The notes under the pieces: model-generated
Databases searched by the model: none
Seen by the model: only the letters and a program-made list of their open reading frames with translations
Told to the model about the DNA's origin: nothing
From: Paenibacillus sp. FSL H8-0537
Lineage (GTDB): Bacteria > Bacillota > Bacilli > Paenibacillales > Paenibacillaceae
Direction: 5' to 3'
DNA: 64,000 nucleotides
Assembly: GCF_038051995.1 (NCBI RefSeq)
Contig: NZ_CP150290.1
Location: forward strand, 483,501 to 547,500
Translations under genes and position numbers: made by a program
Part shown: positions 22,810 through 45,089 of the stretch, in pieces
How positions within the stretch are numbered: position 1 is the stretch's first letter
Layout: every line of letters begins with the position of its first letter

Positions 22810-23736
22810 CTATTGAAACTGAGTGTCCCATTTGTACTTTTCATTATAGATTTCAAAAACTTCTGTGCCAAGCGCTCCCCAGTTATGCTGCGGGTTATTT
22901 CGAATGACATTGTAGAGCCGCAGGAAGCGGTCCTTCGGCAGCTTGCGCGCATAGCGCATAACCAGATGCGGGTATAAAATGACGTAGCGCTTCAAGCGGA
23001 CGGCTGCTCCAGCAATGCCGACGAGAATAGGCTCCCCGTCCTTCATGCGCAAAATTTGCGCTTCATGAATAAGGGCGTAGCGGAACGCTTTCTCCTTCAG
23101 CAAACCCCGTTTCAGCTTGGTGAGCTCGCCTATATACTCGACAAGATCCGGATTGAAATGGTCGAGCAGCAGCGGCTCCAGCATCAGGTCCATATCTTTG
23201 CGCAATACGAATGATTGCAGCAGCAAAATTTGCTCTACCTTAATTTGGTCCGTACGGACGAGCGTGCCGATCTCGCGCAGCATCTCATATGCTTGCTGCT
23301 TCTCGTCGTTATGAAATACCTCAATCGCGGCTTCGCGATCTAGCCGCAGCCCGTCCACCAGCTTAAACGATTCTCTCTGCAGCAGCTTCCCTAATTGGTA
23401 GCTTATCCGTTCGGCATGGGTATTACGACGCAGCATCCATAGAAGGATGAGAGACGTTACGCCGCCAGCAGCGCAAAGACTTGTCTGCAAAGTCGACTCT
23501 GAAAAGAATATTCCAGCGGCAACAAGGGCAAGGATGAGAATAGTTTCCTTAACGATGCTTCTTCGTTGCAGCGATAGCGCCTTTTTCTCCAGTTTAATGA
23601 GGGAAGATTTTCCGCAGGAGGGGCATATTCTATCACCGAGTATGGTGAAGCGGCCGCAACTGCGGCAAATTTTAAGCTTTTCATAAGCTTGTCGTGTTTT
23701 AATGTAGGGATTCAACTGCACAGCTATCTTTTTCAT
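22810..23736 (-). CDS. Zinc-ribbon membrane protein of unknown function
   Basis: 308 aa. A zinc ribbon near residues 25-42 reads CRSCG ... CPSCG. Two hydrophobic segments follow (about 63-98: ETILILALVAAGIFF, GGVTSLILLWML). The remaining 200 residues are soluble, helical and charged, with no recognised domain (YRNP-type motifs absent; contains VIRNNPQHNWGALGTEVFE near the end). ATG 23736 overlaps the stop of the 50-aa gene by one base, so the two are coupled. Divergent from the vWA gene at 24010, which suggests a functional link. No function is assigned. Confidence 0.75.
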   Translation of the reverse strand: MKKIAVQLNPYIKTRQAYEKLKICRSCGRFTILGDRICPSCGKSSLIKLEKKALSLQRRSIVKETILILALVAAGIFFSESTLQTSLCAAGGVTSLILLWMLRRNTHAERISYQLGKLLQRESFKLVDGLRLDREAAIEVFHNDEKQQAYEMLREIGTLVRTDQIKVEQILLLQSFVLRKDMDLMLEPLLLDHFNPDLVEYIGELTKLKRGLLKEKAFRYALIHEAQILRMKDGEPILVGIAGAAVRLKRYVILYPHLVMRYARKLPKDRFLRLYNVIRNNPQHNWGALGTEVFEIYNEKYKWDTQFQ

Positions 23737-23888
23737 CACGAGTTCCCCCGATCGCTGTTCTTAAAGATAGCTAAGGCGAGCTGATCAAGCTGCTCTGGCG
23801 TAGGTGCTTTTTTACGCTGGTTGTAGTAGTGGACACCCCGGAGCAAGACGAAAAGAAACAATATTCCCAGACATACGTATGTAACCAT
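23736..23888 (-). CDS. 50-aa single-pass membrane peptide
   Basis: Starts ATG 23888 with GAGGA 9 nt upstream; the TGA stop overlaps the next ATG (TGATG). The product begins MVTYVCLGILFLFVLLRG, a clear membrane segment, followed by a charged tail with APTPEQLDQLALAIF. The overlap, spacing and ribosome binding site together support a real gene. It is divergent from the vWA protein gene and may be an accessory subunit of it or of the zinc-ribbon protein. Confidence 0.65.
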   Translation of the reverse strand: MVTYVCLGILFLFVLLRGVHYYNQRKKAPTPEQLDQLALAIFKNSDRGNS

Positions 23889-24009
23889 AAGCGCGAGTCC
23901 TCTCTTATGCTTGAAGTGATTTAAGCCATTCTATCAGGTATACTGACAGTATATCATTATTGAGACAACAAGGACCAATATGCTTAATTTGTGGAGAAGG
24001 AGCCAAAAG

Positions 24010-25782
24010 ATGATTCAAATATATCGTTACCTCACCCTGTTATTTCTTATAACGCTGCTTCCATTAGCTGGATTTGCTCCTGCTCCTGCACATGCAGCCG
24101 CACAGAGCTCGCAAATCGACGCCGTTCTGGTACTGGATGTCAGCCAGTCAATGAGCACGAGTGATCCGGGCGGCATCGGCAATGAGGCGATGAAGATGTT
24201 TATCGACATGCTGTCCGAGAAGGGCGACCAGGTGGGCGTCGTATCTTATACCGATCAAATTCAGCGGGAGAAGGCGCTGCTCGAAATTAGCTCGGCTGCT
24301 GATAAGACGAACCTCAAGCAGTTCATTGACCAGCTCAAAAGAGGGGCCTATACCGACATCGCTGTCGGCGTGAAAGAGGCGGTGCAAATTTTGAATGACG
24401 GTGCCGACCCCGATCATGAGCCGCTGATCATCGTGCTGGCGGACGGAAACAATGATTTTAATTCGAAGTCGGGCCGCACGCAGGCCGATTCGGATGCTGA
24501 TATGGCTGAGGCGCTCAAGGAAGCGACCAGCAAGGGCTATCCCGTCTATACAATTGGACTGAATGCGAATGGCAAGCTGAATAAAGCGGCACTGGAAAGC
24601 GTGTCCCAACAAACGGGCGGTAAATCGTTTTCCACAAATACAGCGGCTGATCTGCCGCAAATTCTAAGTGAAATTTTCGCCAGCCACTCGCAGCTGAATG
24701 TAGTGCCTGTCGATTCTTTTACAGCAGATGGCAATTATCAGGATGTCAAAATCACGGTGCCAAACAGCAACGTGCTTGAAGCGAATATATCCATTACATC
24801 CTCCAAGCAGGTGGAGGCAAGGCTCATTGATCCTTCCGGCAACAAAATCGCTATTCCGAGTGATCAGGTGCTGCTCTCGACATCCAAGACCTACTCCCTG
24901 ATGAAGCTAATCAAGCCGGAGGAGGGCGATTGGACGCTTCAAGTGAAGGGCGCGGATCGCGACAAAATCGACATCAATCTTATTTTTAACTATGATCTGG
25001 CGCTGGAGATGGATAAACTGAAAAGCTCGTCATACAGCAAAGGCGATAGCATTCCGATTAATGCTTTTCTGGTAAGCGGCGGGAATAAGCTAAGCGATCA
25101 GGAGCAATACCGCAACATGAAGGCGGTTCTGTACGTCAATGATTTGGACACGGGCACCACAGAGGAAGTTCAGTTGAACAACGCGGGCGATCATTTTGAA
25201 GGCACCTATAAGGTGGCAGACAAACATGATTATGAGCTGAAGGTTCGTGCGGAGGAGGCAAGCTTCTACCGTGAAACAGCCGTCGTGAAAATTAGTGCTA
25301 AAGGCGGCGCCTCGGCGAGCACAGGCACGGGGACTGCGGCGGAAAGCGAAAAGCCATTCCCGCTCATTCCCGTCATTATCGGAGCGCTTGTGCTGATTGC
25401 GCTGCTGGTCGCTGCATATTTCATTATGCGTTACTTGAAACAAGCGCGGCGCGGCTTTGTCGGCCAAATGGTCATTGAGATTCGCGATGAAAATACGGGC
25501 GACAAAACGTTTCCTCAATATAAGAAGCTTAACGCCTTCCGAGGCAAATTCTCGCTGCATCAGCTGCTGCAGCTGGCACCGGAGCTGAAAGAGACGGAGA
25601 AGCTCATTTTCGTGCCGGGCAACAGCGACCGCCTTGTCCTTCGTAATGGTTCGCCGTGTACGGTGGAGAAATCCGGGCGTGCGGTTGATGCCAGCGGCGG
25701 CCTTGAGGTCAAGAGCGGGGAGCGATTGACGATTCCTTTGCAGCAGATCGATAAGACGATTTTTATCGAATATATTGTTTAG
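24010..25782 (+). CDS. Surface-anchored vWA-domain protein
   Basis: 590 aa from ATG 24010 (AAGGAG 7 nt upstream; the frame opens earlier at 23980). A signal peptide ends near PAHAA (about residue 30). The vWA domain (about 36-215) has the MIDAS motif DVSQS (DxSxS, Asp43) and a later LADGNND. A beta-rich middle region follows, then a membrane segment (about 450-473) and a 110-residue cytoplasmic tail containing LNAFRGKFSLHQLLQLAPEL. The vWA domain therefore faces outward and probably binds a metal-dependent partner. It precedes a repeat-filled gap before the tubulin-like operon; membership of that system is inferred. Confidence 0.85.
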   Translation: MIQIYRYLTLLFLITLLPLAGFAPAPAHAAAQSSQIDAVLVLDVSQSMSTSDPGGIGNEAMKMFIDMLSEKGDQVGVVSYTDQIQREKALLEISSAADKTNLKQFIDQLKRGAYTDIAVGVKEAVQILNDGADPDHEPLIIVLADGNNDFNSKSGRTQADSDADMAEALKEATSKGYPVYTIGLNANGKLNKAALESVSQQTGGKSFSTNTAADLPQILSEIFASHSQLNVVPVDSFTADGNYQDVKITVPNSNVLEANISITSSKQVEARLIDPSGNKIAIPSDQVLLSTSKTYSLMKLIKPEEGDWTLQVKGADRDKIDINLIFNYDLALEMDKLKSSSYSKGDSIPINAFLVSGGNKLSDQEQYRNMKAVLYVNDLDTGTTEEVQLNNAGDHFEGTYKVADKHDYELKVRAEEASFYRETAVVKISAKGGASASTGTGTAAESEKPFPLIPVIIGALVLIALLVAAYFIMRYLKQARRGFVGQMVIEIRDENTGDKTFPQYKKLNAFRGKFSLHQLLQLAPELKETEKLIFVPGNSDRLVLRNGSPCTVEKSGRAVDASGGLEVKSGERLTIPLQQIDKTIFIEYIV

Positions 25783-25814
25783 ATGGTTTTGGGGTTCGTA
25801 AAACGGACGGGGAT

Positions 25815-26014
25815 GGTGAAGAGTGGAGCTGCGCGGCGTGAAAGGTTTGGCTTACGATCGCCATTGCCCTTGGAATTGTTGAATAAACCGCTCAACGGCA
25901 CAATTCCAAGGGCAGGGGATTATGCTTACGAAGCTGCTTTCCTACGGAAAGCTTTAAGCGAACGCTCCGCTTCTCCAGCTCAAACCTTTCACTTCGCTGC
26001 GCTCCCCTTTCACC
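25815..26014 (+). mobile_element. Family II MITE-like element, left copy
   Basis: 200 bp with terminal inverted repeats of about 35 bp: left GGTGAAGAGTGGAGC...GTGAAAGGTTTG, right end reverse complement GGTGAAAGGGGAGC...GTGAAAGGTTTG. Inside is a perfect hairpin CCCTTGGAATTGT / ACAATTCCAAGGG and a palindrome GCTTTCCTACGGAAAGC. A second copy lies inverted at 26530-26727. No transposase is encoded. Confidence 0.75.
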
Positions 26015-26079
26015 GCAAGGGTTTTAAAGAACATTAAAACCATGGGGGTTCTAGCGGGGAAGAACACCCCGTGAACCTA

Positions 26080-26131
26080 AAAGATGAAAGATGAAAGATG
26101 CAAGATGAATGATGAAAGATGAAAGATGAAG
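26080..26131 (+). repeat. Heptamer tandem array (AAAGATG)n
   Basis: About seven units of AAAGATG, two of them varied (CAAGATG, AATGATG). Not in a gene. Simple slippage-type repeat. Confidence 0.85.
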
Positions 26132-26212
26132 TGCAAAGTGTAAGTAATCTGGAGTCGGCTTGCTGAGATTATAGCCTAGATCGAGTCGCTCAGGACACGT
26201 ACTCCTTTTTTG

Positions 26213-26392
26213 AAGGACTGAGATTCCGCTATTTTGGTTTTTAATGCAATTTCAGGGGGCAAGCGGACTGGAAAGCCGTTATCCTACCCATTATTCCGTC
26301 AAAACAGCCATTTGCAGCGCATTAGCGGCTCCTGAGTCCGCTGCTTATGCCAAACCCATAATTCATTTGAAATAGCGTCTGCTGTGTCCGCC
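26213..26392. repeat. Four degenerate GGACT-N-CCGCTAT units in inverted pairs
   Basis: Units at 26213-26235 and 26261-26284 (+) and at 26320-26342 and 26370-26392 (-) share the form GCGGACT, about six variable bases, then CCGCTAT. Two point right and two point left, so the stretch can fold back on itself. Confidence 0.6.
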
Positions 26393-26529
26393 AAGTCTTT
26401 CTTTGTGCAAGTAGCAGGCCTCTGTCATAAGGAGCATGGAGAAAAAATATTAGAGGATTTGCGAGGGGGAAAGGGCCTTGCGGTCGTCTATTGTAGATAG
26501 CTTTTGCGGCAATATAGGGTTAGAGGTAT

Positions 26530-26727
26530 GGTGAGAAAAGCGGAATGGAATGAAAAGATTGGACTGTAGAAGCGTAGCGTTCGTTTAAAGCTTTCCGTAG
26601 GAAAGCAGCTTCGTAAGCATATGCTTTTTACTCTTGAAATTCCCCGTATACGGGTTCATTAATAGAAATTCAAGGGTAATGGCGATCAGTTGCCAATCTA
26701 TTCATGCAATGCAGCTTCTTTCTCACC
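26530..26727 (-). mobile_element. Family II MITE-like element, right inverted copy
   Basis: 198 bp. Terminal inverted repeats begin GGTGAGAAA; the minus strand shares GATCGCCATT, CCCTTG and a 29-base core around GAAGCTGCTTTCCTACGG with the left copy. The central hairpin differs (CCCGTATACGGG), so the copies have diverged. It ends 53 bp before the tubulin-like gene start. Confidence 0.75.
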
Positions 26728-26779
26728 ATCCTTCTAACAAGTATACAGCAATGATTCATACCATTTGGAGGTAGAACAA

Positions 26780-29700
26780 ATGAAGCCGATTGTTAGAGAA
26801 CATATCCAGCAGCTAGATGTTTCATTAGGCGGAGGTATCGTCAGTGAGAAAATCCGCGTCGATACGATTGATAATCCTATTCTCATTATTGGCCTCGGCG
26901 GCACCGGCATCGATGCGCTGCTGCGCCTAAAATATCAAATCAACCGCCGCTTTAAGCTGCCGGAAGATCCTTTGTCCAAACGCAAGCTGGAAAAACCGAA
27001 TAACGTCGAGTTTCTAGCTTTTGAGACCAATGAACAGGACCGCAACAAAAAATATAAAGGCATCGGCCTCGACCCGATCAATGAGTTTGTACTGCTCTCT
27101 AATGCCGAAGTCGGCGGATTGCTGCAAAACCGCAGCATTTTGGAGCCTTATATTACCGACTGGCTGTCGCCAGAGCTGAGCATTACCGATGGCATGAACG
27201 GCGCGGCAGGCGTACGCCAAGCTGGGCGTCTGCTGCTCTTTACGAAGATCAATCAGGTTGTGCAAAGCATCGATAAAAAAATCAAGACGCTTTCCGTCGG
27301 CACGAGCAAAAAGCTGATGGTATTCCTGCTTACCGGTCTATCCGGCGGTACGGGCAGCGGCTGCTTCCTTGATATTTCGTATATTGTGCGCGGTATTATT
27401 GAGCGCGATCATGGCTCGGCGGGTGTTGACCGCGTCAACACGCTGGGGTACCTTTTTACGCCGGACATTAATCTCGCGAACAAAAGCTTAAGCGAGCATA
27501 CTAGAGAGTATATTAAGAAAAATGGCTACGCTGCACTCAAAGAGCTTGACTACTGGATGAATGTTGACGCCCGCGGCGAGCGCTTCAAGCAGCAATACGG
27601 CAGCATTCTTAGCGTCAATTCGCCGCTTCCGCCGTTTAACCTTTGCCATCTGATTTCGGCGACGAATACCGAGGGCAAGCTGCTGGAGAATGCTTATGAC
27701 TACTGCATGAACGTGACAGCGGAAAATATTACGAACTTTATGGCGAGCGAGGATAAGCAATCCGGCGAGGAATTCGCCATTCATGACTATATCAGCAACA
27801 TCCGCACGAATATTGCACAAATGAACAAGCAGTATCCGGCTAACTACGATTACAACATTATTGGTGCGTCCTCGGCAGTACTGCCGATTGAGGAAATGAC
27901 GACCTTTTTGGCGTATCGCCTGTTTAGCAAAATGGATAAAATGTTCCACAAAGCGCCGACACAGGACGATGTGGAGAAATTTGCCCGCAAGCTCGGCATT
28001 GATCTCGATACGATGATTAAGACGTTTGAGTCACGTGTGCCGGAGCCGCTTCCGGGCTTTGAGAACAGCGAGCGCCTGAACTACAGCAATGTGGTGAAAA
28101 TGCAGGTGGTCAACATGGATACGGAGCTGGAGCAGACGTTCCTGACGCGTGCCCGCGAGGAATATGTGAAGGCGAAGAAGCAGCTGCCAGGGGAAATCGT
28201 CGGCCAGTTCACCGATCAAATCCGTCGTACCTTCCTGCATCCGGAGCAGGGACCGTTTTACGTATCCCGCCTGCTGCACACCGAGAAAGGCTTCTGCCTG
28301 CTGAAAATGCTGCTTTCCTACATTGAGGTGCTGCGCGAAACGCTGCTGCGCCTGCCGCGCGACATTGAGTCGGCAAGCATTCAAGCGGAAGAGCGGATGG
28401 GCGATGCGAAGAGCGCCTTCGTATCCAAGGACAAGAAGAAAAACAGCTATATCGAAGCTAAAATCAATGAATATTGGCTGCGCGCCGATGTAGAGCGTAC
28501 CGAGCAAATGATTGAGTTCTACGAGGATCTGTATCAGCTGCTGAACAACGAGAATAATCGCTTCTACAGCGTATTTACCGAAGTGCTGAACGTGCTGAAC
28601 GGCATTTTTGCGAAAAATGGCGATATTCTGATCAATGGCGACGAGCAAGCCGATCACAAGGGCAACAAAACCTACTATTGGAATTTGGTCGGCGTGCCAG
28701 ACATTTCCGATGTGATCGCTCGCATCATGGAGAAGAAGGATGTCGATGAGCTCATTCGCGACTTCTCGCAGGGGCTGCTTGACCATTCCGACCAGTGGGT
28801 GAAGGAGAAGGACATTGACATCGTCAATTCCATTTCCGACTTCCTGACCGATAAATTCGGCGATTTGATTACGAGATCGATGGAAGATTTCCTCGTGATG
28901 AAATATGGCAATGACGAGTCGATTGAGAAGTTCGTCGAACGCTTTATTGCTACTAAGCTCGATGAAGAGGCCGTTGCCGTATTCAATCTAAGCAACAGCT
29001 CAGGCAATTTGCATTTCCCATCATGGGGCTTCGTATCGGTGCCGCAGCATGCGCCGAGCATACTCAAGGGCATTCGCAACTACCAGAGCAATGCGGTAGG
29101 GAAATCGCATTTCACCATTAAAGAGAGTGAAGTGAAAAACCGGATATTCTGGCTGAATACGAAAAATGGTGTACCGCTGTTCGTCTACACGCCGCTTAAG
29201 GTATATGAGGAAAGCTATGAACGGACGATTCTCGATAAGGAAGGCGTCGGCCGCCATCTCGTGATGACGGAGAAGGTCAACTGGACGAATCTTCCTTCGC
29301 CAATTCCTGAGAAATCATGGGGCGATACTTATAGCAATGCGAGGGTGAAAGGCTATAATGCCCGCGTTCGCGCCGAATTCCAGCGTGCGCTTGGCTACCG
29401 GATTATTAGCGAGAAGGGTGTAGACAACAGCATGAGCAGTCGTTATGCGGTGCAGTTCACCCAGCCATTCCAGCTGCAAGCGCTGCTGAGCTCCTACAAT
29501 ATGGAGGCAGCTGCTGCTAAGCCGAATCTCGGAGAAGTGAAGCGTGCAGTCATTGAGCTTCGCCGACTGCTCGCTGAAGGCTTGGCACCAGATGGAGTGA
29601 AGGATATTTTCGGCAGCCTGAATGAAGATTTGGCGCAGGAAAACCTTATTCGTTCTCCAGAGCTGCTGGCGCGTGTGCGCGAGGAGCTGGCGAAATACGA

Positions 29701-30169: not shown

Positions 30170-30173
30170 GCCT

Positions 30174-32561: not shown

Positions 32562-32608
32562 AGGCACAGTGAAAAAGCCGAATGCGCGTAAGAGAGGATG
32601 CTATACAC

Positions 32609-33931: not shown

Positions 33932-34573
33932 ATGCGATTTGTGGAAGCAGAGGGCGATTCGCCGCGAATCAAAGGCTTGACTCATACGCTGAGTGGCGAC
34001 CGCTGCACGCTGCAATGGCTATGGCCGAGCGGCGTCGAGGCGGTTTATATCGGCAAGGCGGAGGCTGAGCAGGCGGCATTCAGAGGAGCGCCGGACCCTG
34101 CATCATTAAAGCTCTATACAAGGGCTGAATACAAGTCAAACAACGGCTATCATGTACGGCTGGAGGGCATCGGGCGCTACCGCTTTACCGTCTACATTTA
34201 TGAAGAGGGAGCGGAGGATGGCAAGGTCATCTGGCTGCAGAGCGATGGCCTGAGCGAGCTGGATGTGAGCGCCGGCAGAGCGAAGATCCGCTATTCCGTC
34301 AAGCAGAAGACCGGATTTCTTCAGCGCTATAAGACGGTTTCTATTCAGGTGACGGCGGAGGTGCCGATTGCCAAGGATGTATTGTGTTATGTGAAAAAGG
34401 CAGGGGGCTATCCAGCGAGCAAGGATGATGGCATGATGTATCCATTTGCCGCTGCTTTCGCCTCCGGGCGGAATGTGCTGCCGCCAATCGAGGTCGGCAA
34501 GCAGGACTTCGTCCGTGTATTTTTCACCGATGGCCCGCGTTTCGCACAGCTGTACGAACTGGTGCCGGAATGA
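33932..34573 (+). CDS. Beta-rich hypothetical protein of the GTPase locus
   Basis: 213 aa, no signal peptide or membrane segment. The spacing of aromatic residues (TLQWLWPSGVEAVYI, YHVRLEGIGRYRFTVYIYEE) suggests one or two Ig/FN3-like beta sandwiches; that is inference. AGGGGG lies about 10 nt upstream of ATG 33932. It sits between the vWA gene and the GTPase gene in the same operon, so a scaffold or adaptor role is plausible. Confidence 0.65.
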   Translation: MRFVEAEGDSPRIKGLTHTLSGDRCTLQWLWPSGVEAVYIGKAEAEQAAFRGAPDPASLKLYTRAEYKSNNGYHVRLEGIGRYRFTVYIYEEGAEDGKVIWLQSDGLSELDVSAGRAKIRYSVKQKTGFLQRYKTVSIQVTAEVPIAKDVLCYVKKAGGYPASKDDGMMYPFAAAFASGRNVLPPIEVGKQDFVRVFFTDGPRFAQLYELVPE

Positions 34574-35855: not shown

Positions 35856-38800
35856 TGAAGCATTCTACCTCTATGATTGGCCAGCAGCTGTATACGCGGG
35901 AGCGGCGCGGCATTTTTCGCTCGACGGAAGGTTATGACACGGTGGCCAAGTCCGAAGGGCTGGATCAGCAGTTTGTGAAAAAGCAGCTGCATCCGCTTTG
36001 CGTCTATGATGCTCCAGCTGAGCTGGCCGCAAGCGGCGAGAAGGATGGTGCCGCTTATCCGGAAACAGCGTATGTGCTGAGGCTGGAGGGCGGCGAGGCG
36101 GTTGTTGGCCGCAGCGTCTATCAAGCCGTTGACTTTACTGGGCTTCGAAGCGCCTTCTTCACGCACAACTATGTCATTCCTGCCGCGATTGCAGATGCTG
36201 ACCCGGAAAGCTATAAAGCTTTCCTCGGCGCTGCCTTCGTAGACAGCTACGATATTGAGGAAGGCATGGAGCTGCCCGATTTAGCGGCGCTGCCGCAAGC
36301 GGCGGGCGGCGCATGGACGGCCCGCGAGGCTGGAGCCGCAAGCTCTGCGGCTGGCGGTGCAGGGCTTGCGGGCTTAGGCGGTGGACAGCGGGCGGCGCTC
36401 GCTGCGCTGAACATAAGCGAGCAGCGCTTTAAGCAGCTGCTGCTTGCCGTAATGGCATCGGTTGGCGGACGCAAGAAGGTATATGTGGCGCTGGATGTGC
36501 CTATCGGGCGGCTGCCGGAACAAGCAAAAGCGCTGCTGGCGGTGCTTTATGCGAGCTTGCCTTATGCATTCCGCAAGCAGCTTGGCTTCATGACGTTTGC
36601 CAAGGAGCCGCAAAGCCGCAAAGGGATTCATCTCACCTTCGTCGAGAAGGGCAGCCTGCGGGCGGGCGACCGCAATGTGGATAAGGACTACACCTTTGAT
36701 TTTGTTAACGATCGATTCCTGAATGTGGATTTGGATAAGGGAGAGCATCCTTATTTGGATTTTGCTTGGAGTGTCTTGGACGAGCCGGACCGCGCCGAGC
36801 GTTTTTATCAGTTTGCTGAGGAAATGCTCAGCGGCATGGGGCAGGAGCGGCTAATGTCGCCCCACTCTTACCATGAGCTAAGCGTCCTGTTCCAAGTCGA
36901 GGAAGGCAGCGATGAGCTGTATGAAACGCATAAAAGCGCCGTGCTGCGCGGAATGCTGGAGTATTTGCAGCCGGCAGGAGCGCTTGCGCAGCGCATACGG
37001 ATGAATGATTTGTTTTTGTCCCGCTTCGATTATGAGTTTGATGCTGTTCGTGACGGGCGTGTGCCCGAGCCGTTCATTGCGGAGAGCTTTAAGGATTATT
37101 ACCACATCGACAGCAAATATAATGGTGGCAAAATCGTCGATTTCTTCATCCGTTCCTTGCTTGCTGCACAGCAGCAGGGGCAAGCGGAAGCGATGGCTGC
37201 CTACTATGGAACCTTGGAATCCGATCCGCTGCTGCTGAAGGACTTTGTCAGCAAAATGCTCGCGAACGGCCCCTTGCTGGAACGGCTGCTGCTCCCGTTT
37301 TTGGACGGCAAGCTGCGGGATGCAAGATCGGCGAAGGATATTATTATTTTTATGGGCAAATGGGGCAAGGAATTTCCAGCCATTCTCGATAATGATGTCG
37401 TGCACAAGCTCGTCAGGCAGCAGCTTAAGGATAAGCTGATGGATGAGGAGCAGCCTGTGCAGGTGTTCCAGCAAGTGCATGAGCAGTTGGACAAGCTGAG
37501 CGCTACCGCTTTCGACAGCGACGAGGGCCGCGTGAAGACGAACCATTTGACGGCAGGAATTGGCGTCCGGCTGTTTGAGCTGGAGCTCGTCGCTTACCGG
37601 ACGCTGCTGACGGAGCTTGATTTGGACCGGCTGTCGCAGCGCGAGCTGCTCAAAGGCAGCTTTCTGGAGAAGGCGGATCGGCTGGAGCAGTGGAATGCTC
37701 AATTGACTGATCCTCGGCAAAGGTCGACGGCGCTTATTATTAAAGCGGCCTACGACTGGTTCTTCAAACCGCTGCCGAAGGCAAGCCTGTTCGCAAAGCT
37801 GTCTCCGGTCGAAATCGACCGCGTCCAGCAGCTTGGACGGCGCTGGATGCTGACGGTCGATTCGGAAATGAAAGCCGAGCGGTTCGAGCAACTTGTGCTT
37901 GCCTTCTATCGCAGCTCAGACATGGAGACGATTGATTATGCAGGGCTGCTGGATACGCTGCGCAAGAGCGCAGGGGAAAAAGAGCTCATTTATCAATTTT
38001 TTGCATGGTCGGAGCGCCATGAGGATTTTATGCGGCCGCGAGGCTTCGTGCCTGCGTATGCAACCGCCATTACGAATTATTTCAGGCAGCATGACCGCGA
38101 TGCCTTCAAGAGCCGTGCGAATCGGAATGAATATTTCTCCAAAGCAGGCCCAAGGCTGCAGGCTGTCTACAAGCAGGTAAGAGGGGAGCTGTCTTCGCCT
38201 CTGGCGAAGATGTTTCGGCAAAATCGCAAACCGTTCCTCTTCTCCATAATTATAGCTTTCGCCATACTAATGGTAGGCATAGGTGGCTTGCTTGCGCTTG
38301 GTGGCGGAGACGAGCCTGAGGAAGGGGTCAATCTTCCTGGCGCTACGGGTAGCCCTGGCCTGACTACTCCTGGAGCAGCGATTCCCGATACACTCGTATA
38401 TGCGGCGAAGCAGGAAGGTGTTGACGGCAAACAAACGACAACACTCGTATTCCGGTTCACGGATGCTGCCATATGCAGCGCCTTCTCCCCAGAGACGGTG
38501 GCTGTTGTCGCAGCAGATAGAGAAACAAAGGAATATAGCGGCCTAACGTTTATTCCTAGCTGTTCGGCAGCCCCTGCGGAAACCCCTGCTGGGTCAGGAA
38601 CGGATGAAAGCGGAGCTTCTGCCAGCCCGGGCGATAGTGCATCGCCTACTCCTACAGCAACTAGCGATGCAGCGGCAGGCCATACAGGCAATGTAGAAAA
38701 TGCAGCCGCTGGTACCGCAGATGACGGATCAGCAAGTCCCGGCATTGCCTCCCCATCGCCGGATGCAGGAGCGGACGACGATGCAGCCTCCAGCGGCGGA

Positions 38801-39058
38801 AGCAGTGCAAACCCAGGTGGAACAGGCACCAGCGAGCCAGGTTCTGCTGGCAGCATAGCACAGCCGAATCCGAGCGATTATCCGAACCGCGTCGTTGTCG
38901 ATTTAGGCGAGGATGTGGAGCTGCTTCCAGCGAGCAAATTAAAGGTAGGAAGCGTTGAATATACGCTGTCCGAGCCTTTTGAGGGTGCAGGCCTGACCGA
39001 TACAGATGCTGCCATTAGCACTAGCGAACCGACACCATCAACCAACACAACGAATTAA
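35855..39058 (+). CDS. GAP1-like (GTPase-associated) membrane protein
   Basis: 1067 aa with GTG start overlapping the GTPase stop. The N-terminus, QQLYTRERRGIFRSTEGYDT then LHPLCVYDAP, and the following EAVVGRSVYQ and SAFFTHNYVIP are as I recall the GAP1-N2 family; GAP1-M-like helical sequence follows. One membrane segment (about 794-816, FLFSIIIAFAILMVGIGGLL) separates a 790-residue cytoplasmic part from a 250-residue outer part rich in Ser, Thr, Pro, Gly and Ala. So it could tie the cytoplasmic GTPase to the cell surface. The family call rests on memory of the pattern and was not searched. Confidence 0.75.
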   Translation: MKHSTSMIGQQLYTRERRGIFRSTEGYDTVAKSEGLDQQFVKKQLHPLCVYDAPAELAASGEKDGAAYPETAYVLRLEGGEAVVGRSVYQAVDFTGLRSAFFTHNYVIPAAIADADPESYKAFLGAAFVDSYDIEEGMELPDLAALPQAAGGAWTAREAGAASSAAGGAGLAGLGGGQRAALAALNISEQRFKQLLLAVMASVGGRKKVYVALDVPIGRLPEQAKALLAVLYASLPYAFRKQLGFMTFAKEPQSRKGIHLTFVEKGSLRAGDRNVDKDYTFDFVNDRFLNVDLDKGEHPYLDFAWSVLDEPDRAERFYQFAEEMLSGMGQERLMSPHSYHELSVLFQVEEGSDELYETHKSAVLRGMLEYLQPAGALAQRIRMNDLFLSRFDYEFDAVRDGRVPEPFIAESFKDYYHIDSKYNGGKIVDFFIRSLLAAQQQGQAEAMAAYYGTLESDPLLLKDFVSKMLANGPLLERLLLPFLDGKLRDARSAKDIIIFMGKWGKEFPAILDNDVVHKLVRQQLKDKLMDEEQPVQVFQQVHEQLDKLSATAFDSDEGRVKTNHLTAGIGVRLFELELVAYRTLLTELDLDRLSQRELLKGSFLEKADRLEQWNAQLTDPRQRSTALIIKAAYDWFFKPLPKASLFAKLSPVEIDRVQQLGRRWMLTVDSEMKAERFEQLVLAFYRSSDMETIDYAGLLDTLRKSAGEKELIYQFFAWSERHEDFMRPRGFVPAYATAITNYFRQHDRDAFKSRANRNEYFSKAGPRLQAVYKQVRGELSSPLAKMFRQNRKPFLFSIIIAFAILMVGIGGLLALGGGDEPEEGVNLPGATGSPGLTTPGAAIPDTLVYAAKQEGVDGKQTTTLVFRFTDAAICSAFSPETVAVVAADRETKEYSGLTFIPSCSAAPAETPAGSGTDESGASASPGDSASPTPTATSDAAAGHTGNVENAAAGTADDGSASPGIASPSPDAGADDDAASSGGSSANPGGTGTSEPGSAGSIAQPNPSDYPNRVVVDLGEDVELLPASKLKVGSVEYTLSEPFEGAGLTDTDAAISTSEPTPSTNTTN

Positions 39059-39394: not shown

Positions 39395-39467
39395 TAGACA
39401 GAAATATCGCCGGCTGCCGTTGCTCGCATAGTCATTCATTCGGCAAGCCTTGAGAGGGGAAAAACAA

Positions 39468-41225
39468 TTGAAGATCAAGCTCAAGCATGTCATGGCTGTT
39501 CTGACGGCGCTTGCTTTGCTGTGTCTATATCGGGGGACGTTTTCACAGGCTGAATTTTATTTCCAAGATCATGTGATGCAGCGGGAAAGCCCGGTTGATA
39601 CACAAATCGTCATCGTCGCAGTCGATGATCAAAGCTTGGAGGATCTCGGCACCTGGCCATGGAGCCGCAGCGCACATGCGCAGCTGGTGGATACGCTGAG
39701 TGAGGGCAAGCCAGAGGTCATTGCCTTTGATGTCACCTTTGCGACGAGCTCGGATGAGGAGGCGGACAGCGAATTTGTCGATGCGGTTGCGAGAGCAGGC
39801 AATGTCGTGCTGCCTGTCTACGGGACCTTCGCCGAGTCGGCGCGTTTAGGCGCGATTGAGGCGGAGAAGCTTTCTGAGCCGTTCGAGGGCCTTAAGGAAG
39901 CGGCCGCAGCGACTGGCCACATCAACACGATTACCGATTCAGATCGGGTCGTGCGCAAGGCGCTGTATTCTTTTAATAAAGAGGGCGTGCAGATCGACAG
40001 CTTTACATGGGAGATTTACAAGCTGTATATGCAGCGTTTAGGCAAGCAGGCCGAAACGTCCAAGCTGCCGCTCGATGGCTTTCAGCGTTTCCCGATCGCC
40101 TATACGAGCAGTCCGAATCAGTATGAGGCGATTTCTTATTCGGCCGTGCTGAGCGGCGACGTTCCGGCGGACTATTTTACCAATAAAATCGTCTTGATCG
40201 GTCCATATGCTGTCGGCTTTAACGATCATTATTTGACGCCAATGAACGATAAGCAAGCGATGAACGGCGTGGAAATTCATGCGAATATTCTTCAGCAGCT
40301 TATGGAGCAGGATTTTAAGCGGGAGCTGGATTGGAAATGGAACGCGCTCGTGCTGCTCGCGGCTGTGGTGCTGGCCTATTATTTGTTCCGCAAGCTGAAT
40401 ATGCTGCTGTCCTTTCTGTCGGTTGCGGTGCTTATCGCCGTATTTATCGCAGGTGGACGTTATTTATATGGGCAGGGCATTTTGCTGTCGCTGGGTTATG
40501 TGGTGCCGCTGCTGGCAGCCAGCTGTCTAGCGGTCGTCATTTTCAACTATGTAAGCGAGCTGGCGGAGCGGCGGCGGGTGACCGATATTTTTGGCCGGTA
40601 TGTGGCACCGCAGGTCGTCAACCAGATATTGAAAAATGGCGAGGATGGCTTGAAGCTGGGCGGAAGCAGGCGCGTTCTGACGGTGCTGTTCGTCGATATT
40701 CGCGGGTTTACGCCGCTGTCGGAGAAGGCTGAGCCGGAAGAGATCGTCGAAATTTTGAATGAGTATTTGGATTTGACCGCCAGCTGCATCTTTGAGCAGG
40801 AGGGGACGCTCGACAAATTTATTGGCGATGCGACGATGGCAATCTTCAACGCGCCGCTGCTGCTGGACGATCATCCGATGAAAGCGGTGCGCGCCGCATG
40901 GGCGATGAAGCAGGGCTCAGTGGAGCTGGAGAAGAAGCTCATCAAGCGCTTCGGCTTTGGGGTGAAATTCGGCATCGGCATCCATACGGGGCCTGCGGTT
41001 TTCGGCAACATCGGCTCCAAAACGCGGATGGACTATACGGCAATTGGCGATACGGTCAATACGGCTGCCAGACTGGAAAGCCATACAAAGCCGGGACAAA
41101 TTGTGCTGAGCGAGTCGACGTATGAGGCGGTCAAGGATCGCATTTTGGCGGAATCGCTTGGAGAAATAAAGGTCAAGGGCAAGGAGCAGCGCATTCATAT
41201 TTATGAATTGGAGGGATTAAAATGA
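39468..41225 (+). CDS. CHASE2-domain adenylate cyclase (class III)
   Basis: 585 aa from TTG 39468 (GAGGGG 8 nt upstream; an earlier TTG at 39450 overlaps nothing useful). One N-terminal membrane segment, an extracellular CHASE2 sensor (about 35-285: VAVDDQSLEDLGTWPW, VIAFDVTF), three further segments (about 290-360), then the class III catalytic domain (400-565). Metal-binding Asp residues are in VDIRGF and FIGDATMA. The base-specifying pair is Lys in DKFIGD and Thr in DYTAIGDTVN, which predicts ATP, not GTP, as substrate. It would turn an external signal into cAMP. Its ATGA overlap with the FecR gene shows coupling. Confidence 0.9.
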   Translation: MKIKLKHVMAVLTALALLCLYRGTFSQAEFYFQDHVMQRESPVDTQIVIVAVDDQSLEDLGTWPWSRSAHAQLVDTLSEGKPEVIAFDVTFATSSDEEADSEFVDAVARAGNVVLPVYGTFAESARLGAIEAEKLSEPFEGLKEAAAATGHINTITDSDRVVRKALYSFNKEGVQIDSFTWEIYKLYMQRLGKQAETSKLPLDGFQRFPIAYTSSPNQYEAISYSAVLSGDVPADYFTNKIVLIGPYAVGFNDHYLTPMNDKQAMNGVEIHANILQQLMEQDFKRELDWKWNALVLLAAVVLAYYLFRKLNMLLSFLSVAVLIAVFIAGGRYLYGQGILLSLGYVVPLLAASCLAVVIFNYVSELAERRRVTDIFGRYVAPQVVNQILKNGEDGLKLGGSRRVLTVLFVDIRGFTPLSEKAEPEEIVEILNEYLDLTASCIFEQEGTLDKFIGDATMAIFNAPLLLDDHPMKAVRAAWAMKQGSVELEKKLIKRFGFGVKFGIGIHTGPAVFGNIGSKTRMDYTAIGDTVNTAARLESHTKPGQIVLSESTYEAVKDRILAESLGEIKVKGKEQRIHIYELEGLK

Positions 41226-43567
41226 GAAGCTTCAAATGGCTGCTTGTATGGATGGTTGTGTGTTATGCAGCACTGCCTGCAGCGGCATGGGCGAAGGATA
41301 CCGATAAAGTCGGCAAGCTGACGGCTGTTTCGGGCAAAGCCGAGGTGAAGAAGGGCGGCGGCACAAAAAGCTTCAATGCGTTTAAGGGCATGGCTATTAC
41401 GCAGGGGGATACGATCAAGACGGGAAGCAATGGCAAAGTCAGCATGGACCTCGACAGCGACAAGGAAGTGACGATTGGAGCGAACACGACGCTGCTCATC
41501 AGTGAGCTGGTCAAAAGCGCCAGCGCGCTTGGCGGCAAGACGAAGCTGACGCTCCAGAATGGTTCAGTCATTATTCAGGTGAAGAAGAAGCTCACCGGCG
41601 ATTCCCGCTTTGAAATCGAGACGCCGACAGCGACAATGGGCGTTATGGGCACTAAATTCGCTGTTTCGTATGAGCAGGACAACAGCTATGTCGGCGTGCT
41701 CGAAGGTGTCGTAAACGTCACCGGAGAGGATGGCGAGCGAATCGCGGCGCTTTTGGCGAATGAGCAGATCGAGCTGAATCAAGCAGGCGAAGGCGCGAAA
41801 GGGCCGCTTGTGCTGGGCGATCTGCCGCTCGTTGCGCTGGAGAAGCTGCTGGAGGAGCTGGAGCAGGCTGCTGATACGGAAGCCAATGCGGCGCTCAAGC
41901 AGCAAATAAGCGAGCTCGTGAAGCAAAAACAGGCGGATCTGGAGAAGGCGGAAGAAGCGGCAGGGCAGCCTTACAGCAAACCGACTATTGTATATGGTCA
42001 GCCCGCTTCTAGTGTGCCCGCGAGCAGTGGAGGAAACAGTGGTTCTGGTTCGGGCGGAAGCACGCCAACGCCGACACCTGCCGTGACACCAACACCAGAA
42101 GCCACACCAACGCCTACTGCTACGGCAACACCAGATGTGACGCCAACACCAGTGCCGACGGAAACCCCGACACCGACACCAGTCGTGTATGAAGGGGCGC
42201 CAGAGGCAGATACGTCTGCTTTTTACAGCAATCTATATCATTATTTTATAAATAGCACGACGATCGTTATTCCTTTCACGACGCCGCTTGCCTTCAATGA
42301 GCAGGAGGATGATCCGAATCGGACGCTTTTGGACGGCGTAATATTTGCAATCAATGATCCGGAGTTTTTCTGGGAAGCCCGAAGTGCAACGATAGACGGC
42401 AAAAATTTGGTTATCCAATTATCCAATGAGCTTCCGCTCAATTCCAGACTGTATATATCTGTACGTGGCGATTATTTGAAAAATGCTCAAACAGGTGAAG
42501 TGCAGGCGGACTTTACCGAGCTTGGTCGGGATGGCAATGATATTGATTTTAAGCCAGCGCTTAACCAAACAGACCTTCGTTATGTACAAAACTTGACCGA
42601 AACGACTGACTTGGATGATATATTCGTCTATCATCTCGGCTATAGCAATGCCACTATGACAATGACTTTGGCAAGTGCAGAAGGCCCAGTGGCTTTTGAT
42701 TCCGAGGTGGCGTATTACACTCAAATGAGCGGGGAAAATCATTTCACCTTCACCATTAATAATCAATGGCTCGAAACTTTGGATGCAGCAGCAGCGCCTT
42801 ATACGTTGTCGGTTAAGCTGGATTTGGAAGGCGAAGAGATTGCAGATTTGAACATGAACATTATGGTGGAGGATTCTCGCGACCTGCCTTATTTTGACGA
42901 GGAGGCCTTCGATAGCGATAGAGATCTTTATATTAAAAATGACCATACGTTTGTGCTGCCTTTCACGACAGCGATTATTTACAATGAGCAGGCCTTTCCT
43001 AATCAGGGACTCGTACAGCAAGTAGAGTTCAGGCTCTATGACGAGCAAGGAGATCGAAGCAGGAGGCTGCCGATCGAATATGTCGAAATATCAGGCAAGG
43101 AGCTGTCGATCTATTTGGCTGAAGCTGTCCCTAGAGGCACGAGGATTTTAGTAACGATTGCCGGAAACAGCTTGAAAAACCCGGAAAAGGACAAAGTTCA
43201 GCCGAATATGCTGAAAACGACTGAGCGCACTTTCTTTAACGTATCGTGGAGTCCGGGATATGTAAAGCATATCAAAGATAGCAGCATGCCGAATCCCCCT
43301 GTTACTCGAATCAATACGATGGGTGATGACTTAGGGGAGGTGCGAATTTACGGTGGATCGGAGATCGGATCGAGAATCGTGGATGCAGCGGATTATACGA
43401 TTGAACAGGAGCCGGGCAGAGGTCCGACGATTACGCTAACAGAAGCCTTTTATAATCGCTTGGATGTGGGAAGCCATTTCGTTGAAGTCCTTATTATGCA
43501 AAATGGGAAAGAAGTCAGCTCAGCACTCATTGAAATTTTGATTTTGCCGGCACGAATATTGGGCTAA
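41222..43567 (+). CDS. Secreted FecR-domain protein with repeat domains
   Basis: 781 aa; ATG 41222 overlaps the cyclase stop (ATGA) and has GGAGGG upstream. A signal peptide ends near AAAWA (about residue 22). The FecR domain (about 28-180) contains GDTIKTGSNGKVSMDLDSDK and PTATMGVMGTKFAVSY. After a helical stretch and a Pro-Thr linker (about 270-325, repeated PTPT) come two similar domains, about 340-430 and 570-662, sharing IPFTTPLAFNEQ/LPFTTAIIYNEQ and GDYLKN/GNSLKN. The layout suggests a cell-surface protein; FecR here is probably a structural module, as no sigma factor is near. Confidence 0.82.
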   Translation: MRSFKWLLVWMVVCYAALPAAAWAKDTDKVGKLTAVSGKAEVKKGGGTKSFNAFKGMAITQGDTIKTGSNGKVSMDLDSDKEVTIGANTTLLISELVKSASALGGKTKLTLQNGSVIIQVKKKLTGDSRFEIETPTATMGVMGTKFAVSYEQDNSYVGVLEGVVNVTGEDGERIAALLANEQIELNQAGEGAKGPLVLGDLPLVALEKLLEELEQAADTEANAALKQQISELVKQKQADLEKAEEAAGQPYSKPTIVYGQPASSVPASSGGNSGSGSGGSTPTPTPAVTPTPEATPTPTATATPDVTPTPVPTETPTPTPVVYEGAPEADTSAFYSNLYHYFINSTTIVIPFTTPLAFNEQEDDPNRTLLDGVIFAINDPEFFWEARSATIDGKNLVIQLSNELPLNSRLYISVRGDYLKNAQTGEVQADFTELGRDGNDIDFKPALNQTDLRYVQNLTETTDLDDIFVYHLGYSNATMTMTLASAEGPVAFDSEVAYYTQMSGENHFTFTINNQWLETLDAAAAPYTLSVKLDLEGEEIADLNMNIMVEDSRDLPYFDEEAFDSDRDLYIKNDHTFVLPFTTAIIYNEQAFPNQGLVQQVEFRLYDEQGDRSRRLPIEYVEISGKELSIYLAEAVPRGTRILVTIAGNSLKNPEKDKVQPNMLKTTERTFFNVSWSPGYVKHIKDSSMPNPPVTRINTMGDDLGEVRIYGGSEIGSRIVDAADYTIEQEPGRGPTITLTEAFYNRLDVGSHFVEVLIMQNGKEVSSALIEILILPARILG

Positions 43568-43583
43568 AGGGAGTGGAAATCCA

Positions 43584-45089
43584 ATGAACAAAAAAGGAAT
43601 GCTGCTAGCATTCGGTGCGCTGCTGGTCACATCGCTGCTGCCGCAAGGAGGCATAGCCACGGCCGCTGGGGCAGCCCCGGGCGCAACAGCCAGAGCTGGA
43701 ACAGCTATGGAATGGTCAGTCGCGGAGGCGACAGCTGCCGCTGTAACCTATGAGCTGCAAGGCTTGAGGCAGCCATGGGGCTTGACGGCAGCAGCGAGCG
43801 GGGAGGAGCTGCTTGTCGTGAGTTCGGGCAGCCATAACATCGGCCGCTGGAACGGTGCTGCGGGTAAAATCAGTGCTGCCGCAGGCAGCGGAGCAGCAGG
43901 GTATGTGGATGGGGAAGCGGCGGCAGCTGCATTCCGCACGCCTTCTTTTGCTGCTACGGATGCGAAGGGCAATGTGTACATTAGCGATACAGACAACCAT
44001 GCTATTCGCAAATTTGCGGGTGGCAAGCTGACGACGCTGGCAGGAAACGGAGAAGCTGGCTACATGGATGGCGAGCAGAGCAAGGCGCGTTTTAACTCGC
44101 CAACGGGTATTGCGGTTGATACTGAGGGCAGCGTTTATGTGGCCGATACGCTTAATCATGTTATTCGCCGGATTACGCCGGAAGGTGTCGTATCGACATT
44201 TGCTGGACAGGCGCCTTCAGGAGAAACAGGTGATTATGTAGATGGGACGGCAGCGCAGGCGCGGTTTAATGAGCCTACAGGGCTTGCTTTTGACGAAGCG
44301 GGGCGCCTTTTTGTTGCAGATAGTGGAAATCATGTCATTAGGGTAATAGATAAAGGAGAGGTCGCGACGCTTGCGGGGCAAAAGACAGCAGTCGATCCTT
44401 TGACCGGCTATCGGATGGGAGGCTATCAAAACGGAGCTGCTGCTGATGCACGCTTCAATCGCCCGCGTGGGCTTGCTTATGCAGATGGCGTCCTGTTCGT
44501 GGCGGACAGTCTCAATCACCGGGTTCGCGCTGTGACGGCGAACGGCCGAGTGGTAACACTGGCTGGAAACAATGCGGCTGGCGACCAGATCGGCACAGCT
44601 GAGCAGACGCAGTTCAATCAGCCTTCGGGGCTGTTTTACCGCTCAGGAAAGCTGTATATTTCCGATCCGCCGAATGGCAATGTGAAGGCGCTAGCGGTTA
44701 ATCCGGCTCAATTGCAGCCTGTGCGAAATGCGGAGGATCTATTGTCTGGCATTGATTTGTTGCCTGCGGGCGCAGCTGTACAGCTGTGGCTGGACGGCAA
44801 GCAGCTGACGAGCGGTCCTGCACCTTACACGCGCGAGAATAAGGTGTATCTCCCGGTGCGAAGCGTATTTTCAGCATGGGGCGCTGAGCTGAATTGGCAT
44901 GCCGCATCGAAAACCGCCAAGCTGCATAAAGGCGATTGGTCACTGAGCCTTAAGCCGGATTCCAAGGGCAAAGTTGTCATAACGAGAGGCGCGCTTTATA
45001 TCGAGGCCAGCCACTTGGAGAGCTTAACTTCATTCCTTGCCGTCTATGACACCGAATATCGCGCTGCTGTCCTAGACAGCGGGCAATAA
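43584..45089 (+). CDS. Secreted NHL-repeat protein with C-terminal stalk domain
   Basis: 501 aa. A signal peptide ends near IATAAG (about residue 28). Residues 55-375 are five or six NHL-type beta-propeller blades, each with NVYISDTDNHAIRKF or VYVADTLNHVIRRI and ARFNSPTGIAVD-like turns. The last 100 residues match the copper-amine-oxidase-N/stalk domain common in Paenibacillus surface proteins (KVYLPVRSVFSAWGAELNWH). GGGAG upstream, 16 nt after the FecR gene, so probably the third gene of that operon. A ligand-binding propeller on a stalk is inferred. Confidence 0.85.
   Translation: MNKKGMLLAFGALLVTSLLPQGGIATAAGAAPGATARAGTAMEWSVAEATAAAVTYELQGLRQPWGLTAAASGEELLVVSSGSHNIGRWNGAAGKISAAAGSGAAGYVDGEAAAAAFRTPSFAATDAKGNVYISDTDNHAIRKFAGGKLTTLAGNGEAGYMDGEQSKARFNSPTGIAVDTEGSVYVADTLNHVIRRITPEGVVSTFAGQAPSGETGDYVDGTAAQARFNEPTGLAFDEAGRLFVADSGNHVIRVIDKGEVATLAGQKTAVDPLTGYRMGGYQNGAAADARFNRPRGLAYADGVLFVADSLNHRVRAVTANGRVVTLAGNNAAGDQIGTAEQTQFNQPSGLFYRSGKLYISDPPNGNVKALAVNPAQLQPVRNAEDLLSGIDLLPAGAAVQLWLDGKQLTSGPAPYTRENKVYLPVRSVFSAWGAELNWHAASKTAKLHKGDWSLSLKPDSKGKVVITRGALYIEASHLESLTSFLAVYDTEYRAAVLDSGQ

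What the first reader, a model, noticed from the sequence alone, without database searches (positions are those of the whole stretch)
22810..45089. Tubulin-like / GTPase / twin-vWA / cAMP locus that may be one envelope-spanning system
Twelve genes in about 22 kb: a 50-aa membrane peptide and a zinc-ribbon membrane protein (divergent), an outward vWA protein, then tubulin-like, degenerate tubulin-like, membrane vWA, beta-rich protein, zinc-ribbon GTPase and GAP1-like membrane protein in one tight run, then CHASE2-adenylate cyclase, FecR-domain and NHL/stalk proteins. Seen directly: the motifs, overlaps and order. Known: GAP1-type proteins and TRAFAC double GTPases occur together in predicted GTPase-centred (possibly conflict or signalling) systems, and Tubulin_2 proteins occur near vWA genes. 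Inference: a cytoplasmic GTP-driven assembly is tied to the surface by GAP1-like and vWA proteins, with cAMP as a second output. I know of no experimental function.
Basis: partly seen in the sequence, partly recalled or inferred. Interest (0 to 1): 0.88.

Follow-up and report, generated by a model that had tools for sequence, protein, structure and literature searches.

The report
Nine-gene bacterial tubulin-GTPase envelope module
A soil bacterium carries a compact set of nine genes, kept together in its relatives, that probably builds a tubulin-like scaffold under the cell membrane and links it to proteins on the cell surface; the type was predicted before but has no known function, and the neighbouring cyclic-AMP genes are not part of it.

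Summary
The genes exist as described, but the proposed twelve-gene unit is two things. Nine genes (22810-39058) form one module: 50-aa membrane peptide and zinc-ribbon membrane protein (divergent), vWA1, tubulin, pseudo-tubulin, vWA2, beta protein, DO-GTPase, GAP1-N2. Order and strands are the same in 41 of 41 loci examined. In 299 Bacilli genomes full-length Tubulin_2, GAP1-N2 and the zinc-ribbon protein hit the same 42. The cyclase-FecR-NHL block is a separate three-gene unit: next to GAP1 in 3 of 21 loci, all sister species, and elsewhere in 12 of 12 other genomes fetched, three of them without the module. The other seven genes match a published predicted system (Kaur 2020; Makarova and Koonin 2010); I did not see the divergent pair named in the parts read. 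New here: that pair as constant parts, a nearly gap-free tubulin beside a pseudo-tubulin without the GTP loop, likely transfer between families, purifying selection. Most likely a GTP-regulated tubulin-like scaffold under the membrane tied to outward vWA domains. I found no experiment.

The parts
23736..23888 (-). TMp50: 50-aa single-TM peptide with short conserved cytoplasmic tail; overlaps the ZnR gene
   Evidence: Found at the same place in 41 of 41 loci examined: 18 of 21 by BLASTP, the other 3 by profile at E 6.3e-13 or better, 20 of 20 in the second set, some at E only 1e-3 to 5e-3 but always just upstream of ZnR. One TM segment in 37 of 38 scored.
22810..23739 (-). ZnR: zinc ribbon (CxxC at 25 and 39), TM hairpin, helical-repeat domain predicted cytoplasmic; constant component of the module
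   Evidence: No Pfam family over cut-off. Profile hits exactly the 42 of 299 Bacilli genomes that have GAP1-N2 and full-length Tubulin_2. Best 80 of 117 relatives in GTDB genomes: 80 have divergent vWA1, 79 also Tub1, the exception ending at a contig end. Four cysteines invariant in the 73 sequences aligned (the short G240 copy, without the CxxC pairs, was left out). AlphaFold pLDDT 92.7, pTM 0.82. Hydropathy: one or two segments in 38 of 41, none in 3.
23889..23979 (.). Shared divergent intergenic region with back-to-back -10-like TATACT (23939-23944, + strand) and AGTATA (23948-23953, TATACT on the - strand)
   Evidence: 18 loci aligned (G048, G031, G002 not included): TATACT in 17 and AGTATA in 16; G041 does not align. 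The consensus scan did not report these as promoters and found no excess (6 sites, 4.6 expected). Function not tested.
23980..25782 (+). vWA1: signal-peptide-like N-terminus, extracellular vWA (MIDAS DVSQS), beta domain, TM 465-483, 117-aa cytoplasmic tail
   Evidence: VWA Pfam E 9e-16; DxSxS in 41 of 41; tail conserved, 117 aa in 3 of 3 loci measured; two hydrophobic segments in 37 of 41, one in 4.
26780..30169 (+). Tub1: Tubulin_2/FtsZl1-family protein, 1129 aa, GTP loops intact (GLGGTG near residue 38; SGGTGSG at 188-194)
   Evidence: Pfam Tubulin_2 E 9e-75. 21 orthologues align over 1129 columns with no gap. GGTGSG in 41 of 41, GLGGTG in 39 of 41.
30174..32561 (+). Tub2: pseudo-tubulin; glycine-rich GTP loop absent, an R-x-DD-P type motif in most copies
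   Evidence: 15 of 21 orthologues match Tubulin_2; no glycine-rich loop in 41 of 41, RxDD[PA]-type motif matched in 36 of 41; fold comparison.
32582..33895 (+). vWA2: multi-TM protein, vWA (MIDAS DNSGS) between N- and C-terminal TM clusters, predicted outside
   Evidence: VWA E 1e-20; DxSxS in 41 of 41; 5 or 6 hydrophobic segments in 40 of 41.
33932..34573 (+). Beta-rich protein without TM, in the place of the FNIII component of Kaur et al. 2020
   Evidence: Orthologue in 41 of 41 loci; no fn3 match at E 0.1 in 21 members, three stray single matches at E 0.07-0.09; no solved relative by sequence.
34596..35855 (+). DO-GTPase with two CxxC pairs in its N-terminal part; P-loop GASQVGKS, DVAGE, TKSD
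   Evidence: DO-GTPase2 and DO-GTPase1 Pfam over cut-off; P-loop, D[VTI][AS]GE and two CxxC in 41 of 41.
35855..39058 (+). GAP1: GAP1-N2 and GAP1-M domains, one TM at 795-813, polar C-terminal extension of 254 aa predicted outside
   Evidence: Pfam; one TM in 39 of 41, two in 2. Extension 64-254 aa in the 6 loci measured.
39450..45089 (+). NOT part of the module: independent CHASE2-cyclase / FecR / NHL three-gene block
   Evidence: Adjacent to GAP1 in 3 of 21 loci; same three genes together in 12 of 12 other loci without GTPase or GAP1.
25783..26777 (.). NOT part of the module: dispersed-repeat insertion between vWA1 and Tub1 in this species group
   Evidence: Of the 21 loci only G000, G032 and G013 have about 1 kb here, the others 84 bases or less; 47 genome matches.

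Best explanation
A nine-protein envelope-associated scaffold under GTP control. Shown: nine genes together in every locus examined, domain content, intact GTP loops in Tub1 and the DO-GTPase, no GTP loop in Tub2, intact MIDAS motifs in both vWA proteins, predicted membrane segments in five of nine proteins. Inferred: Tub1 (GTP-binding) and Tub2 (pseudo-subunit) co-assemble on the inner face of the membrane; the DO-GTPase is the switch that permits assembly or disassembly and acts through GAP1; GAP1, ZnR and TMp50 tie the assembly to the membrane; the outward vWA1 and vWA2 bind a wall or surface ligand in a metal-dependent way, and the conserved 117-aa cytoplasmic tail of vWA1 passes that state to the assembly. 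Net effect: a regulated surface-to-scaffold connection that organises or senses the envelope. The cyclase block is a separate signalling unit.
For: Nine genes, same order and strands, 41 of 41 loci; the same 42 of 299 genomes for three marker components; ZnR linked to vWA1 in 80 of 80 and to Tub1 in 79 of 80. Tub1 is 1129 aa with zero gaps in 21 orthologues at 62% or more identity to the window copy; over 41 loci 8 internal gapped columns, in 4 loci; rpoB, at 88-99% identity in the same 21 genomes, has 3 gapped columns in its inner part: tight geometry, as in an assembling subunit. Tub1 and the GTPase have the lowest dN/dS (0.012-0.033 and 0.007-0.023). Motifs. Membrane segments. Tub2. ZnR: TM hairpin and helical repeats, pLDDT 92.7. 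Published predictions: membrane remodelling (PMC2875224) and membrane-proximal cytoskeleton-like assemblies (PMC7159879).
Against: No polymerisation, localisation or phenotype data found. [quoted passage not shown] Tub2's tubulin fold is tied with unrelated Rossmann folds, Foldseek gave no significant match and hhalign probability is only 19%. Tub1 was not modelled. A gap-free alignment can have other causes. No ligand for the vWA domains is known. 18 of 37 genomes of the genus show no module (one of them, G018, is 63% complete), so it is dispensable.
Confidence: 0.45

Rival explanations
1. Conflict (immunity or regulated cell death) system, as Kaur et al. 2020 propose for GAP1-N2 systems: the tubulin assembly is an effector triggered by an invader.
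For: The DO-GTPase/GAP1-N2 core belongs to their class, and that class is over-represented in multicellular-habit organisms (601 of 904, their Table 1). Transfer into the G002/G031 lineage is likely and the locus has different chromosomal neighbours in different groups.
Against: Composition is constant (41 of 41), no variable effector gene; whole-gene dN/dS is 0.007-0.23 for all nine genes in 7 pairs (whole-gene averages, some pairs saturated at silent sites, so single fast sites are not excluded); apart from G002/G031 the tubulin tree keeps the rpoB groups; no PADLOC match at E 0.01 for the eight module proteins scanned. Of 131 flank ORFs listed 120 from 19 loci were scanned: 11 PADLOC families at E 1e-10, each in at most 4 (mad3 4, mad8 3, capH, AriA, HTH_VI and control proteins 1-2, WYL 1); the 25 commonest of 118 Pfam families are mainly regulators, transporters and enzymes, with AAA_21 in 4. 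Complete defence systems were not searched for.
Confidence: 0.2
2. Membrane-remodelling, vesicle or developmental machine (Makarova and Koonin 2010), for example acting in sporulation or colony morphogenesis, without a surface-sensing role.
For: FtsZl1 with vWA and a GTPase is their predicted machinery; named hosts are Paenibacillus, Bacillus and Neobacillus (that these form spores is recalled).
Against: None of the Pfam matches is a remodelling domain such as ESCRT or dynamin; no module seen in 18 of 37 genus members. Sporulation-type promoters were not sought.
Confidence: 0.25
3. The reader's twelve-gene unit with cAMP as second output.
For: Adjacent and co-oriented in G000, G032 and G013; cyclase orthologue commoner with the module (12 of 19 versus 3 of 18; confounded by kinship); G019 has the block 29 kb away.
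Against: Adjacent in 3 of 21 loci; independent block in 12 of 12 other genomes fetched, 3 without the module. A 391-bp gap follows GAP1; its promoter-like site is no more than chance gives.
Confidence: 0.04
4. Chance neighbourhood of unrelated genes.
For: None found.
Against: Order conserved in 41 of 41 with different flanks in different groups.
Confidence: 0.01

Closest known systems
[quoted passage not shown] passages and the whole of section 29 read)
   Same: Two tubulin-domain genes, two vWA genes (one multi-TM with the vWA outside), DO-GTPase with zinc-binding N-terminus, GAP1-N2/M with TM and polar C-terminal extension; the beta protein sits where they place an FNIII component.
   Different: The divergent ZnR protein and TMp50 are constant here but not named in the text I read (figure images and source data not seen). 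Tub2 lacks the GTP loop, which section 29 does not say. YtkA and FNIII domains not recovered here by Pfam. Whole-gene selection does not show an arms race.
FtsZl1 family and vWA/GTPase operons (Makarova and Koonin, Biol Direct 2010, PMC2875224; parts 1 and 2 of 5 read)
   Same: Tubulin_2 protein of about 1000 aa, vWA and diverged GTPase in one operon; Brevibacillus brevis is among their species.
   Different: In the parts read they do not name GAP1, the pseudo-tubulin or the ZnR/TMp50 pair; their additional files (families A1-A2, B1-B9) were not seen and may hold some of these.
Integrin or focal-adhesion type linkage (recalled analogy, no call)
   Same: Outward metal-dependent A domain, one TM, cytoplasmic tail, cytoskeleton-like protein and GTPase inside.
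   Different: Analogy of layout only; no homology beyond the vWA domain, no function shown.
Pycsar cyclase (PADLOC PycC)
   Same: Class III cyclase domain similarity (E 1.8e-29).
   Different: Here a CHASE2 receptor cyclase in a FecR/NHL operon; outside the module.

Membership tests
GAP1-N2 GTPase-centric system (Kaur 2020) | DO-GTPase of the TRAFAC clade | tested here: met
   PF19993 30.8 bits and PF19975 27.4 bits, cut-offs 27
GAP1-N2 GTPase-centric system (Kaur 2020) | Conserved glutamate in Walker B of the GTPase | tested here: met
   D[VTI][AS]GE in 41 of 41; that this E is the one meant is my reading
GAP1-N2 GTPase-centric system (Kaur 2020) | Two N-terminal zinc ribbons on the GTPase | tested here: inconclusive
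   Two CxxC in 41 of 41: enough for one four-cysteine site by sequence
GAP1-N2 GTPase-centric system (Kaur 2020) | GAP1-N2 and GAP1-M domains in a gene downstream of the GTPase | tested here: met
   E 3e-44 and 5e-28 in the window protein; orthologue downstream of the GTPase in 41 of 41
GAP1-N2 GTPase-centric system (Kaur 2020) | GAP1-C domain | tested here: inconclusive
   No third Pfam domain at E 1
GAP1-N2 GTPase-centric system (Kaur 2020) | FNIII component | tested here: inconclusive
   Beta protein gives no fn3 match in 21 members at E 0.1; fold not predicted
Firmicutes tubulin theme of that system | Two tubulin-domain genes | tested here: met
   Tub1 E 9e-75; Tub2 15 of 21 orthologues, window copy itself without a match
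Firmicutes tubulin theme of that system | vWA protein with several TM helices, vWA outside | tested here: met
   5 or 6 segments in 40 of 41; outside is inferred from three N-terminal segments
Firmicutes tubulin theme of that system | Other vWA fused to YtkA | tested here: inconclusive
   No YtkA match in 21 members at E 0.01
Firmicutes tubulin theme of that system | Polar C-terminal extension on GAP1 | tested here: met
   254 aa in the window, 75% S/T/P/G/A/D/E
FtsZl1 / Tubulin_2 family | Glycine-rich GTP loop | tested here: met
   Tub1 SGGTGSG in 41 of 41
FtsZl1 / Tubulin_2 family | Central coiled coil and helical C-terminal domain | not tested
   Tub1 was not modelled; Tub2 model shows long helices 470-610
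FtsZl1 / Tubulin_2 family | Filament formation (expected, not shown by its authors) | not testable with these tools
   Needs protein biochemistry
   3 of 21 loci; independent in 12 of 12 other loci
Known anti-phage defence system (PADLOC) | Module protein matches a defence model | tested here: not met
   0 matches at E 0.01 for the eight module proteins scanned (TMp50 not scanned; library of 2023)

The most novel reading that the evidence does not exclude
A bacterial surface-to-cytoskeleton machine, transferable as a set and laid out like an adhesion complex: outward MIDAS vWA receptors with a conserved cytoplasmic tail are coupled through GAP1 and a dedicated membrane zinc-ribbon/solenoid scaffold (ZnR with TMp50) to a GTP-binding tubulin and pseudo-tubulin pair whose lattice geometry tolerates almost no insertion or deletion, with a TRAFAC GTPase as switch.
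Probability: 0.2. Interest if true: 0.85.

Novelty: new member of a known kind. Interest (0 to 1): 0.5.

Why it matters
The module contains a poorly understood branch of the tubulin superfamily on which I found no experiment (searches, open-access library only). Defining its nine-gene boundary, with two extra constant membrane parts and an active/pseudo tubulin pair, makes it testable in culturable Paenibacillus (P. polymyxa carries ZnR, vWA1 and Tub1). If it is a surface-linked tubulin scaffold it would be a new kind of bacterial cytoskeleton-to-envelope connection.

Tried and rejected

The ~1-kb insertion between vWA1 and Tub1 is nested dispersed repeats, not a tenth gene. Literature searches for experimental work; none found in the held open-access library, which lacks most subscription papers and all bioRxiv preprints.
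Full report
OBSERVATION. The window lies in a 7.0-Mb one-contig genome. The closest named relative of the zinc-ribbon protein is in Paenibacillus algorifonticola at 95% identity, so the host is most likely a Paenibacillus. All twelve ORFs of the finding are real at the stated places and the domain calls are right. The likely start of the first tubulin is ATG 26780: a GGAGGT lies just upstream and that start gives the 1129 aa seen in most relatives.

BOUNDARIES. I fetched the module region from 20 of the 21 other module-bearing relatives (G056 left out) and from 20 of the 41 other Bacilli positives. With the window this is 41 loci. In 41 of 41 the nine genes TMp50, ZnR (both divergent), vWA1, Tub1, Tub2, vWA2, beta, GTPase, GAP1 are present in the same order and orientation (three TMp50 copies by profile). 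Genes next to the window's module recur in full at the same place only in G032 and G013 of the 20 other loci; a few other loci have partial, differently placed matches. G032 and G013 are sister species (rpoB 99% identical). Flanking DNA is shared mainly within close groups (G000/G013/G032; G033/G009; G029/G015; partly G016/G010 and G022/G026), with a few shorter matches between others. Some copies look damaged: vWA2 is 292 aa in G011, and in G240, a genome with 8% contamination, ZnR and vWA2 are short.

CO-OCCURRENCE. Among 299 Bacilli genomes, full-length Tubulin_2 (E below 1e-70), GAP1-N2 and the ZnR profile hit the same 42 and no other; six further genomes have only weak Tubulin_2 matches (E 1.3e-7 to 3.1e-4) in frames of 284-625 aa. 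In 60 relatives ZnR is in the 22 genomes with full-length Tubulin_2 and in none of the other 38. In GTDB species genomes 117 stretches encode a ZnR relative; of the best 80, all 80 have a divergent vWA1 and 79 also Tub1; the exception is cut at a contig end; TMp50 was recognised in 79. In a draw of 398 Bacillota GAP1-N2 is in 10: seven of the window's family and three others, one of these below the cut-off; whether those three have the rest of the module was not checked.

THE CYCLASE BLOCK. Cyclase, FecR and NHL genes follow GAP1 in 3 of 21 loci; one of the other 18 (G031) has too little sequence after GAP1 to tell. Twelve other genomes with a cyclase orthologue of 64-71% identity were fetched: in 12 of 12 the three genes stand together, and in none are GTPase or GAP1 within the roughly 19 kb fetched. 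Three of the twelve (G012, G020, G034) have no full-length Tubulin_2. Results the other way: orthologues are commoner in module-bearing genus members (12 of 19 versus 3 of 18), which kinship could explain, and G019 has the block 29 kb from Tub1 on the same strand. I read this as an independent operon placed next to the module in one species group.

EVOLUTION. Whole-gene dN/dS in seven pairs is 0.007-0.23 for all nine genes; Tub1 0.012-0.033 and the GTPase 0.007-0.023 are slowest, GAP1 0.11-0.19 among the fastest (silent sites are near saturation in some pairs). In the valid rpoB tree the 19 genus members form one group (100/99), and a group of G002, G031, G041 and G048 is rejected (p-AU 0.0013). 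The Tub1 tree joins exactly those four and rejects the 19 as one group (p-AU 5.6e-7; G002 and G041 are long branches); ZnR gives the same four together, with long branches. So Tub1 and ZnR, and by their unbroken linkage probably the whole set, moved between families at least once; old duplication with loss is the alternative. Otherwise the main rpoB groups (the other 17 genus members, g18, g19, g20, f32) are kept in the Tub1 tree.

MECHANISM. Constant composition, a slow GTPase-tubulin core and mostly faster membrane and surface parts fit one envelope-bound assembly: Tub1 with Tub2 as scaffold, the DO-GTPase as switch acting on GAP1, GAP1, ZnR and TMp50 as membrane ties, and outward vWA domains as metal-dependent binders of wall or surface. 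Presence, linkage and motifs are shown; assembly, switch and ligand are inferred. The conflict reading of Kaur et al. remains possible but gains nothing from selection, composition or neighbours.

KNOWN OR NEW. Kaur et al. 2020 describe the Firmicutes GAP1-N2 tubulin theme with two tubulins, two vWA proteins and an extended GAP1 (passages, and section 29 read whole). Makarova and Koonin 2010 predicted an FtsZl1-vWA-GTPase membrane-remodelling machine (parts 1-2 of 5 read). A 2023 FtsZ/tubulin phylogeny treats Tubulin_2 proteins as divergent and sets them aside (passages). A 2024 paper on phage-shock systems mentions the DO-GTPase family once (one passage). I saw no naming of the ZnR or TMp50 families in the parts read, but figures and supplements were not seen. 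Experimental work was sought and not found. The locus is therefore a member of a known predicted kind, with its boundary set at nine genes.

Noticed in passing
window 25783-26777: A ~1-kb nested inverted-repeat insertion separates vWA1 from Tub1 in G000, G032 and G013 (the 18 other loci have 84 bases or less; some of the loci have gaps of up to 2.4 kb, not examined). An inner ~200-bp repeat has more than 30 diverged copies in the genome; the outer arms recur a few times (40 of 126 candidates scored). As RNA it folds at z -11.4 against 20 shuffles.
   Followed up: partly
window 48058-50598: One ORF joins an AraC-type regulator (ligand domain and HTH) to a glycoside hydrolase family 39 domain, near GH10 (50984-53947) and GH3 (61429-63720) genes.
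   Followed up: no
L023 (G020:C22:61086-61370) and weak hits: Weak Tubulin_2 matches (E 1e-4 to 1e-7), several in frames of about 390-460 aa, suggest one or more shorter tubulin-like families apart from this module.
   Followed up: no
window 39450-45089 and L126-L137: CHASE2-cyclase, FecR-domain and NHL genes form a conserved three-gene block of their own in this genus; in most of the 12 loci the FecR protein aligns over only about a third of its length.
   Followed up: partly
L043 (G011), L157 (G240): Possible decay: vWA2 ORF of 292 aa in G011; ZnR and vWA2 short in G240, a genome with 8% contamination.
   Followed up: no
window 21786-22718: A protein with weak matches to MerR-type HTH models lies just downstream of ZnR on the same strand; found only in G032 and G013 of the 20 other loci.
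   Followed up: no
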